Positions 1,897 through 61,361 of a stretch of DNA of 64,000 nt are shown here, piece by piece. The position numbers were made by a program, and so were the translations under genes. Numbering within the stretch: position 1 is the stretch's first letter; every line of letters begins with the position of its first letter. Origin of the DNA: Pseudomonas sp. MM223 (GTDB lineage: Bacteria; Pseudomonadota; Gammaproteobacteria; Pseudomonadales; Pseudomonadaceae); contig OX352322.1 of the NCBI GenBank assembly GCA_947090765.1, positions 5,821,001 through 5,885,000 on the forward strand, read 5' to 3'. Under the pieces are notes generated by a model. That model ran no database searches, was not told where the DNA came from, and was given only the letters and a program-made list of their open reading frames with translations.

Positions 1897-2934
1897 CAGC
1901 TGCGCCCTCGTATCAGCAGGAACAAAAAGAACGGCGCACCGATAAAGGCCGTGACAATACCAATCGGCAACTCGGCAGGCGCCAGCACCAGCCGCGCAGC
2001 CAGGTCGGCGAACAGCATCAGCACGCCCCCCGCCAGTAACGAGGCGGGTAGCACCACGCGGTGATCAGGCCCGGCCAGCAAGCGCACCAGGTGCGGCACC
2101 ACCAGGCCGATGAAACCGATCAGCCCCGCAGCAGCCACTGCCGCCCCCACACCCAGCGCCGTGCAGAACACCAGTTCGCGCTTGAGCCTCTCCACGTCAA
2201 CGCCCAGGTGACGCGCCTCAGAACTCACCCAGCAACAGGGCATTAAGCGCCTTGGCCCGGCGTGGCAGCCACACCGCCACCCCCGCCGCCACCAGCAGCA
2301 ACGGCCACAGCCGTTCGTAGCTGGCTCCGTTCAGGCTGCCAAGGTTCCAGAACGTCAGCGTGCGCAGGGTGGCGTCGTCGGCCAGGTAAGAGAACAGCCC
2401 GACGGCCGCGCCACCCAACGCAGTCATGGCCACGCCAGCCAGCAGCATCGTGGCGACGTTGGTCTGGCCATCGCGCCGCCCCAGGCGGTAGACCAGCGCC
2501 GTTACCCCAAGCCCCCCTACAAACGCGCAGAACGACAGCAAATAAGGCGCGAAAGCCTCCGGCATGCCGCCAAACCAGGCACCACCGACAATGGCGACCG
2601 CGGCCCCCATCGCGGCCCCGGCGGCAACCCCCACCAGCCCCGGGTCGGCCAACGGGTTGCGGAACAGCCCCTGCATGGCCACGCCGGACAGCGCCAGCAC
2701 CGCACCCACCGCCAGCCCCAGCAGGGTACGCGGCAGGCGAATCTGGCCCAGGATCATCTCGGCCTGTTGCAGGCCGTCAGCCGCAATCGGCAGCCCCAGC
2801 AGGCGCAGGCCGGCACGCAAGGTATCGAACAGAGGCAAGCTGACCGGCCCCAGCGCCAGCGACAGCCAGACCGCCAACAGGCACAACAGGCTCAGGCAAA
2901 TGAACAACGTACGTGGCTGGACCCGCTGCTTCAT
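1896..2934 (-). pseudogene. hmuU: Heme ABC transporter permease HmuU, frameshifted
   Basis: A FecCD-family inner-membrane permease split by one extra base. Residues 1 to about 237 (signal-anchor, then helices with the PLADPGLVGVAAGAA motif) read in one frame and end ...LLLGEF-stop. The remainder (SEARHLGVDVERLKRE onward, including GLIGFIGLVVPHLVR and the RGRS end) is in the next frame. Removing one T from TGAGTTCTGAGG on the minus strand (an extra A at 2222-2223 on the plus strand) restores a 345-residue protein of normal length. Both halves look under full purifying selection, with no other damage. A sequencing error is therefore likelier than real decay. hmuT overlaps the start by 4 bp and hmuV overlaps the stop. 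Confidence 0.88.
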
Positions 2935-3815
2935 TGTGCAAAGCTGGCCTGGGCTGCCGGGTAGAAGGTGGCAGCCAGCGACTGCAAGGTCGATGGCAGG
3001 CGTGGGCCGAGCCCACCTACCAGCAGCGTCGGGTCCAGTGACACCAGGCGTTTCTCACGCACAGCCCGCGAGGCAGCCAGCGCGGGGTTTTCTTTCAACA
3101 GCGCCTGCAAGGCCTGCTCATCGGCCAGCGCCCGGTCGGAAAACACGATCACATCCGGGTCAAGCGCCGCCAAGGCTTCGTTGGAGAAGTTCTTGTAGCC
3201 CTGATGCTCTGCCAGGTTGTGCCCGCCTGCCTGGCCCAGCAGCCAGTCGCCCGCAGTACCCTGCCCGGCGATCAGCGGCTTGGCCCCGGCATGGCCGACC
3301 AGCAGCAACACCCCAGGTGCCTTTTGCCCGGCCTGAGCCTGTTTGACCTTGGCCTGCACAGCCTCCAGCTGCTGGTGGTAACCCGCTGCCAACGCCGAAG
3401 CCTGCTGCTCTGCGCCCAGCAACTGCCCCAGATGCTTGAGGTTTTCATCCACCGCCGCCAGTTCGGCCTTGCTGGAGAACAACTCGACCCGCACGCCGGC
3501 CTTGCGGATTTGCGCCAGTACCGGCGGCGGGCCCATTTCCTCGGTACCCACCAGTACATCCGGGCGCAGGCTAAGAATGCCTTCAGCCGACAACTGCCGC
3601 TGGTAGCCCACGCTGGGCAATGATTTCAGCGATGCCGGGTGTTGGCTGGTGGTGTCCACACCGACCAGCCGCGCTTCACCGCCCAGTGCGGTTATCCATT
3701 CGCTCAGGGCGCCCCCCGCGCTTACCCAGCGTTGCGGCAACTCGGCCGCCAGGGCCTGGGTGGAGAGCACAAGGCTTGCGCACAGGGCGAGCAAGGCGAC
3801 TGGACGGCGCATCAT
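2931..3815 (-). CDS. hmuT: Heme ABC transporter periplasmic substrate-binding protein HmuT
   Basis: A 294-residue periplasmic binding protein of the BtuF/HmuT type. The signal peptide (MMRRPVALLALC..., cleavage near ALA-AELP) is followed by the two-lobed fold, with motifs such as RWVSAGGALSEWITALG and LRPDVLVGTEEMGPP. It should deliver heme from the periplasm to HmuUV. It is the first gene of the operon, overlaps hmuU by 4 bp and is preceded by a Fur box at 3907-3925, so iron repression is expected. No TonB-dependent heme receptor or cytoplasmic HmuS lies alongside, so the outer-membrane receptor must be elsewhere. Confidence 0.9.
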   Translation of the reverse strand: MMRRPVALLALCASLVLSTQALAAELPQRWVSAGGALSEWITALGGEARLVGVDTTSQHPASLKSLPSVGYQRQLSAEGILSLRPDVLVGTEEMGPPPVLAQIRKAGVRVELFSSKAELAAVDENLKHLGQLLGAEQQASALAAGYHQQLEAVQAKVKQAQAGQKAPGVLLLVGHAGAKPLIAGQGTAGDWLLGQAGGHNLAEHQGYKNFSNEALAALDPDVIVFSDRALADEQALQALLKENPALAASRAVREKRLVSLDPTLLVGGLGPRLPSTLQSLAATFYPAAQASFAQ

Positions 3816-3906
3816 CGGGTTCCTTCTGAAGGCGAGCCGCGCGCCTTGTGGCGGGCGGCAGAACTGCGCACCATAGATGGCCAGGCGCAGCGAATGCGGG
3901 CAATTT

Positions 3907-60153: not shown

Positions 60154-60216
60154 AGTGAAAGGGGCCGGGCGCCATTGCGCGCCCGGCAATCCCCACAAGC
60201 AACGCTGCGAGAATCC

Positions 60217-61361
60217 ATGATCATTTCTGCCTCTACCGACTATCGCGCCGCGCCCAACGCAAGCTGCCTCCCTTCCTGTTCCACTATGCCGACGGTGGCG
60301 CCTACGCCGAGCACACACTGCGCCACAACGTGTCGGACCTGGCCGGCATTGCCCTGCGCCAGCGCGTGCTGAACAACATGTCCGAGCTCAGCCTCGAAAC
60401 CCGCTTGTTCGACGAAACCCTGAGCATGCCGGTGGCCCTGGCCCCGGTCGGCCTCACCGGCATGTACGCCCGCCGTGGCGAAGTGCAGGCGGCACGTGCA
60501 GCGGCGGCACACGGCATCCCGTTTACCATGTCGACCGTGTCGGTCTGCCCGATCGAAGAAGTGGCCCCGGCGATCAACCGGCCGATGTGGTTCCAGCTGT
60601 ACGTGCTCAAGGACCGCGGCTTCATGCGCAACGCCCTGGAGCGGGCCAAGGCAGCCGGGGTCAAAACCCTGGTATTCACCGTCGACATGCCCGTACCCGG
60701 CGCCCGCTACCGCGATGCCCACTCGGGCATGAGCGGCCGCAACGGCCCGCTGCGCCGCGTGCTGCAGGCCATGACCCACCCCGAGTGGGCATGGGATGTA
60801 GGGGTGATGGGCCGCCCGCACGACCTGGGCAATATCTCCAAGTACCGGGGCAACCCCACCGGCCTGGCCGATTACATCGGCTGGCTGGGCAACAACTTTG
60901 ACCCGTCCATCTCCTGGAAAGACCTGGAGTGGATCCGCGAGTACTGGGACGGCCCGATGATCATCAAGGGTATTCTCGATGCCGATGACGCCCGCGATGC
61001 GGTCAAGTTCGGCGCCGACGGCATCGTGGTGTCCAACCACGGCGGCCGCCAGCTCGACGGCGTGCTGTCCAGCGCCCGCGCCCTGCCGGCGATTGCCGAT
61101 GCGGTCAAAGGCGACCTGAAGATTCTCGCCGACTCCGGCATCCGCAGCGGCCTCGACGTGGTGCGCATGATCGCCCTGGGCGCCGACACCGTACTGATCG
61201 GCCGCGCCTTCCTCTACGCCCTGGCTGTACATGGCCAGGCCGGAGTGAAAAACCTGCTGGAGTTGTTCGAGAAGGAAATGCGCGTGGCCATGGTGCTGAC
61301 CGGTGCCAAGTCGATCAGCGAGATCACCCGCGACTCGCTGGTACGCGAACTGGGCGCCTGA
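60217..61361 (+). pseudogene. lldD: L-lactate dehydrogenase (FMN) LldD, frameshifted
   Basis: A respiratory L-lactate:quinone oxidoreductase, FMN-dependent and membrane-associated. The first 12 residues (MIISASTDYRAA) read from ATG 60217. The rest (QRKLPPFLFHYADGGAYAEH...) is one frame over because a base is missing between 60252 and 60253 (GCGCC in place of GCGGCC). All later motifs are intact, including PVALAPVGLTGMYARRGE, the PMWFQLYVLKDR flavin segment and catalytic His in SNHGGRQLDG. The corrected length is 381, normal for LldD. Initiation at the in-frame ATG 60378 would lack the N-terminal part of the barrel. Confidence 0.92.

What the first reader, a model, noticed from the sequence alone, without database searches (positions are those of the whole stretch)
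2222..60253. Seven single-base frameshifts in conserved genes, mostly at GAGCTG/CAGCTC
hmuU (~2222, +1), tpiA (~37089, +1), dapB (~49021, +1), dnaJ (~49218, +1), fur (~55199, -1), lldP (58794, +1) and lldD (~60252, -1) each need one base changed to restore a full, normal-length protein. Apart from this, the genes look perfectly conserved. In tpiA, dnaJ, fur and lldP the corrected sequence contains GAGCTG or CAGCTC at the indel, and in dapB the hexamer is within 4 bp. This points to systematic base-calling error, perhaps at a modified DNA motif, which would itself reveal an active methyltransferase. Many intact GAGCTG sites also exist, so the link is suggestive only.
Basis: partly seen in the sequence, partly recalled or inferred. 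Interest (0 to 1): 0.75.

Follow-up and report, generated by a model that had tools for sequence, protein, structure and literature searches.

The report
Motif-linked sequencing errors breaking genes
Seven apparently broken genes in this Pseudomonas genome are very probably sequencing mistakes, most of them falling on one six-letter DNA word, which suggests that the bacterium chemically marks that word with an enzyme still to be proven.

Summary
The seven frame breaks are in the sequence and private to this assembly: every relative covering each place is intact (4 of 4 or 5 of 5); the same kind of test finds 0, 0, 0, 0 and 1 breaks in five relatives. They are very unlikely to be mutations: tpiA, dapB, dnaJ and fur would all be lost together. 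In 282 kb of aligned coding sequence CAGCTC/GAGCTG scores best of the hexamers tested: 13 of 16 one-base insertions against 4.2% of random positions. In a held-out 115 kb it is best again, 7 of 9. No other NAGCTN word alone explains an insertion. In the window 5 of 7 breaks fit; hmuU and lldD do not. Best explanation: systematic long-read consensus errors at a modified asymmetric hexamer. Best candidate enzyme: a 1304-residue methyltransferase with two catalytic domains, 53 kb from the window, beside McrC-like and AAA-like genes as in the LlaJI and PcaI restriction-modification systems; of 398 Pseudomonas genomes searched only this one has it. Modification, platform and enzyme are inferred; other methyltransferases are present.

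The parts
1895..2934 (-). hmuU-type FecCD permease gene, broken near 2222; not at the hexamer
36394..37150 (-). tpiA, broken near 37089, at the hexamer
48333..49140 (-). dapB, broken near 49022, at the hexamer
49151..50277 (-). dnaJ, broken near 49217, close to its 3' end, at the hexamer
55152..55689 (-). fur, broken near 55199, close to its 3' end, at the hexamer
58482..60153 (+). lldP, broken near 58793, at the hexamer
60186..61361 (+). lldD, broken near 60252, close to its 5' end; not at the hexamer

Best explanation
The breaks are systematic consensus errors of the assembly, not mutations. The chromosome carries a base modification in the asymmetric hexamer CAGCTC/GAGCTG; the long-read basecaller (most likely Oxford Nanopore) had not learned it and at a few per cent of the sites settled on a one-base error, usually an insertion, which breaks any gene it falls in. 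The most likely writer is the 1304-residue two-domain DNA methyltransferase at G000 C1:5937892-5941806, one domain for each strand, the modification half of a LlaJI/PcaI-like restriction-modification cassette. Shown: private breaks, association with the hexamer and its replication in held-out sequence, presence of the cassette. Inferred: the modification, the platform, the modified base, and the link between enzyme and motif (about 0.5 for that link alone; the confidence below is for error at a modified hexamer).
For: Breaks private to the assembly. CAGCTC/GAGCTG best of the hexamers scored: 13 of 16 insertions against 4.2%, p 6e-16; held-out 7 of 9, p 8e-9. Pooled, 20 of 25 insertions match it and 0 match only another NAGCTN word. 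Sixteen of the 20 have one of two stereotyped forms, and all four bases occur on either side of the word. Two-domain methyltransferase with PADLOC type II methyltransferase score 2864 bits beside a DUF2357 plus PDDEXK_7 protein and an MTaX1 protein; G000 alone of 398 Pseudomonas genomes has it. Precedents for modification-driven consensus errors: PMC6591954, PMC10687267, PMC11610573 (passages).
Against: No reads or platform record were available. 12 of the 38 counted breaks do not fit the hexamer, among them hmuU and lldD; some of these may be misplaced gene starts. For one-base deletions the excess is weak: 3 of 8 against 15% and 3 of 5 against 16%, p 0.03. Published modification errors are mostly mismatches, here they are insertions, and I found no clear excess of substitutions at the word. 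Flanks are not wholly neutral (T follows the word in 7 of 20 error sites, 10% of intact ones). Only 38% of the stretches taken could be aligned. At least four other methyltransferase genes are present.
Confidence: 0.85

Rival explanations
1. Same artefact and same modified hexamer, but another enzyme writes the mark: the C5 methyltransferase at C1:4277404-4278573, the Eco57I/IIG-like protein at C1:350893-354792, the D12-type at C1:3567391-3568116, or one of two phage-type C5 enzymes at 3577661 and 4430246. (This rival shares the main claim of the best explanation; the odds are for the enzyme.)
For: All are present. The C5 enzyme sits by a PADLOC type II helicase-domain protein with a weak MzaC match, and an mza system went with error-prone Listeria genomes in PMC10687267 (passages).
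Against: An asymmetric site needs both strands to be marked for protection, which suits two catalytic domains; single C5 and D12 enzymes usually read palindromes (established knowledge). None of these rivals was searched for in the genus, so their rarity is unknown.
Confidence: 0.35
2. Consensus errors at CAGCTC/GAGCTG without any modification: a quirk of the basecaller, polisher or library for this word.
For: Nothing here measures modification; the error is highly stereotyped.
Against: The word is common (about 1200 per Mb here and 1400 per Mb in G003), so a general quirk would break genes in many long-read genomes; the relatives tested show 0, 0, 0, 0 and 1 breaks, though their platforms are unknown.
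Confidence: 0.11
3. True frameshift mutations or strain-specific gene loss.
For: The breaks are private to the strain; hmuU and lldD lie outside the motif and could be real.
Against: Core genes tpiA, dapB, dnaJ and fur would be hit together; the breaks concentrate on one hexamer; the genome is otherwise 99.93% complete.
Confidence: 0.03

Closest known systems
Modification-mediated nanopore consensus errors (Dcm sites, PMC6591954; GCAGC and GCTGG in Listeria, PMC10687267; R/Y ambiguities in Klebsiella and others, PMC11610573; passages of each seen)
   Same: Assembly errors centred on one short strain-specific word, with methyltransferase genes in the genome.
   Different: The word is CAGCTC/GAGCTG, and the errors are one-base insertions rather than the mismatches or purine/pyrimidine ambiguities described in the passages on Listeria and Klebsiella.
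LlaJI (PMC1459862, abstract) and PcaI (PMC8989522, passages): type II systems with McrBC-like restriction subunits
   Same: Methyltransferase beside an McrC-like PD-(D/E)XK protein and an AAA-like partner; LlaJI also reads an asymmetric site with two methyltransferases.
   Different: Here both methyltransferase domains are fused in one protein with an N-terminal helix-turn-helix and match N6_N4_Mtase rather than a 5mC family, and the methyltransferase gene is convergent to the other two.

Membership tests
Modification-mediated long-read consensus error | Breaks private to the assembly, relatives intact | tested here: met
Modification-mediated long-read consensus error | Errors concentrate on one short word | tested here: met
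   26 of 38 counted breaks at CAGCTC/GAGCTG; 20 of 25 insertions
Modification-mediated long-read consensus error | Errors vanish in amplified DNA or short reads | not testable with these tools
   no reads held
Modification-mediated long-read consensus error | A methyltransferase with this target in the genome | tested here: inconclusive
   several methyltransferases found, specificities unknown
LlaJI/PcaI-like type II restriction-modification system | Methyltransferase gene, for an asymmetric site two activities | tested here: met
   two methyltransferase domains in one 1304-residue protein
LlaJI/PcaI-like type II restriction-modification system | McrC-like subunit with PD-(D/E)XK nuclease | tested here: met
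   DUF2357 and PDDEXK_7 in the 526-residue neighbour
LlaJI/PcaI-like type II restriction-modification system | McrB-like GTPase subunit | tested here: inconclusive
   627-residue neighbour: MTaX1 domain, no AAA family at E up to 0.01; P-loop seen by eye in the translation
LlaJI/PcaI-like type II restriction-modification system | Modifies CAGCTC/GAGCTG and restricts unmodified DNA | not testable with these tools
   needs the bench

The most novel reading that the evidence does not exclude
Assembly errors alone reveal an asymmetric modified hexamer, CAGCTC/GAGCTG, written on both strands by one fused two-domain methyltransferase of an McrBC-type restriction-modification cassette. I found no paper in the held library that reports this hexamer as a modification target: searches returned no paper; two searches returned 68 and 2,656 papers by looser terms, and none of the 15 and 8 listed holds the hexamer.
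Probability: 0.42. Interest if true: 0.5.

Novelty: new member of a known kind. Interest (0 to 1): 0.36.

Why it matters
Anyone using this genome would wrongly call core genes pseudogenes. If the breaks are as dense elsewhere as in the aligned coding sequence (38 in 397 kb), several hundred are expected genome-wide (inference). More broadly, a strain's modification target can perhaps be read from a finished assembly plus relatives, without reads, and here it points to a testable enzyme of a large family (2924 proteins at E up to 1e-50 among the 7990 candidates scored).

Tried and rejected
Whole-AGCT modification (AluI-like) was rejected: no insertion is explained by another NAGCTN word alone. 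A strictly longer motif was not supported: all four bases occur directly before and after the word, although flank frequencies differ somewhat from intact sites. A reverse control that scored G003 against open frames of G000 gave 16 and 12 breaks, 8 of 28 with the hexamer; it is contaminated, since G000's own broken frames come back there (the dnaJ place appears twice), and was replaced by the multi-genome control. Substitutions at the word were inconclusive. The 16S copies were tried as an internal control: the three full copies have equal length, but my alignment mixed orientations and the script ended in an error, so nothing is drawn from it. Seeking another genome with the same enzyme, to test co-occurrence, failed: 1 of 398 in the genus and 1 of 398 in the phylum, G000 itself both times; the 5 plasmid records found were under 60% identical and the 1 viral contig 50%. 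The scan of genome contigs used an antisense frame of carB by mistake; its loci served only to show that the window is Pseudomonas. Dropped before the counts: 69 of 93 indel clusters and 27 of 41 (near gene ends, several gaps, net change over 2, or flank identity under 0.6). In one search the p-values were computed for the 60 hexamers with most hits among 2080; for those with at least 3 insertion hits. Several kept breaks without the hexamer lie 60-160 nt from a predicted start and may be misplaced starts.

Full report
What the window is. The window is G000 C1:5821001-5885000 of a 6.73 Mb, 2-contig genome that is 99.93% complete. Its carB is 94, 93, 93 and 92% identical to that of G025, G024, G009 and G003; named records with the same region are mostly Pseudomonas of the putida kind.

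Observation. Compared with five relatives, the window differs by one base inside each of the seven genes, and every relative that covers the place agrees against it. Pfam shows split domains or the expected family in the pieces of all seven. Repeating the test with each relative in turn gives 0, 0, 0, 0 and 1 private breaks against 7 for the window. So the breaks belong to this assembly, not to the lineage.

Not mutation. tpiA, dapB, dnaJ and fur are core functions (established knowledge); losing all of them within one 64-kb stretch of an otherwise complete genome is hardly credible, and concentration on one word is not what mutation gives. In dnaJ and fur the break lies near the 3' end, so those two alone might be tolerated.

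Motif. I compared G000 5421001-6285000 with G003 131391-997390. Of 864 kb, 319 kb aligned; in 282,397 bp of aligned coding sequence (258 open frames) 24 internal single breaks passed the filters, of 93 indel clusters. For all 2080 hexamers I counted how often the observed sequence at a break is one letter away, and computed p for the 60 with most hits. CAGCTC/GAGCTG came first: 13 of 16 insertions against 4.2% of random aligned positions (p 6e-16); for deletions 3 of 8 against 15%. In a held-out stretch (G000 6285001-6585000; 128 of 300 kb aligned; 114,904 bp coding; 14 breaks of 41 clusters) it was first again: 7 of 9 insertions, p 8e-9, and 3 of 5 deletions, p 0.03. The first set contains the window, which suggested the motif; the held-out set does not. 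Together 26 of 38 breaks fit and 12 do not.

Shape of the error. Pooled, 20 of 25 insertions match CAGCTC/GAGCTG, none matches only another NAGCTN word, and 5 match none. All four bases occur just before and just after the word, so the hexamer is the likely unit, and it is asymmetric; flank frequencies are not wholly neutral. Sixteen of the 20 have one of two forms. The aligned stretches hold 553 intact sites (394 + 159), so about 3.5% of the sites were hit by a counted insertion. In the window 5 of 7 breaks fit; 1 of 20,000 random sets did as well. I found no clear excess of substitutions at the word, which differs from the published pattern.

Mechanism. Basecallers that have not learned a modification make consensus errors at its motif: about 70% of the consensus errors of then-current ONT basecallers lay in Dcm sites in one benchmark genome (PMC6591954, passages); Listeria strains showed GCAGC- or GCTGG-centred errors, four of the five carrying an mza methyltransferase system (PMC10687267, passages); Klebsiella and others showed motif-centred ambiguities (PMC11610573, passages). 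The same cause is the simplest here. The platform is inferred.

Candidate writer. Family searches of G000 gave one ORF with two N6_N4_Mtase domains (C1:5937892-5941806, 1304 residues; translation), one Eco57I-type protein, no PF02384 match at E up to 0.001, five PF00145 matches at three places and one D12. The two-domain protein has an N-terminal helix-turn-helix, two sets of methyltransferase motifs by eye and scores 2864 bits with a PADLOC type II methyltransferase model. Next to it, convergent, lie a DUF2357 plus PDDEXK_7 protein, that is, McrC-like, and a 627-residue MTaX1 protein with a P-loop by eye. On an Arthrobacter-type plasmid the relatives are two adjacent methyltransferase genes followed by MTaX1, AAA_5 and a further gene without a family; a second plasmid has the same order by its annotation. 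LlaJI reads an asymmetric site with two methyltransferases and McrBC-like subunits (PMC1459862, abstract); PcaI pairs a Dcm-like enzyme with McrBC-like subunits (PMC8989522, passages); a census reports methyltransferase association in all three branches of McrB GTPases (PMC11090510, passages). A hexamer with one adenine on each strand suits a two-headed adenine methyltransferase (inference). At E up to 1e-100 the gene was found in 1 of 398 Pseudomonas and 1 of 398 phylum genomes, G000 itself both times, while close homologues exist in other collections. This is circumstantial: about 0.5 that it is the writer.

Verdict. It is a known kind of artefact at a word that I did not find reported as a modification target (listings only). 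Moderate interest: it spoils gene calls in this genome and hands over a testable pair of enzyme and motif.

Noticed in passing
G000 C1:349220-358111 (L223): Operon-like set of an HKD+Snf2 helicase, an Eco57I/IIG-like methyltransferase of 1299 residues and an SMC/AAA-type protein: looks like a defence system.
   Followed up: partly
G000 C1:4273554-4278573 (L224): C5 methyltransferase near a PADLOC type II helicase-domain protein and a NOV_C protein: a second possible restriction-modification island.
   Followed up: partly
G000 C1:3577661-3579457 and 4430246-4431967 (L225, L226): Two similar phage-type C5 methyltransferase genes; in the first the C-terminal family match lies in another frame than the rest.
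   Followed up: no
window 61407 and 6155-6158: Two further one-base differences: 5 of 5 relatives at 61407 (between genes), 4 of 5 at about 6156 (at a gene start).
   Followed up: no
G000 C1:5931499-5947555 (L180, L265): The methyltransferase lies near a transposase-like gene (by eye), an ADP-ribosylglycohydrolase and a WYL-domain gene, as in a defence island.
   Followed up: no
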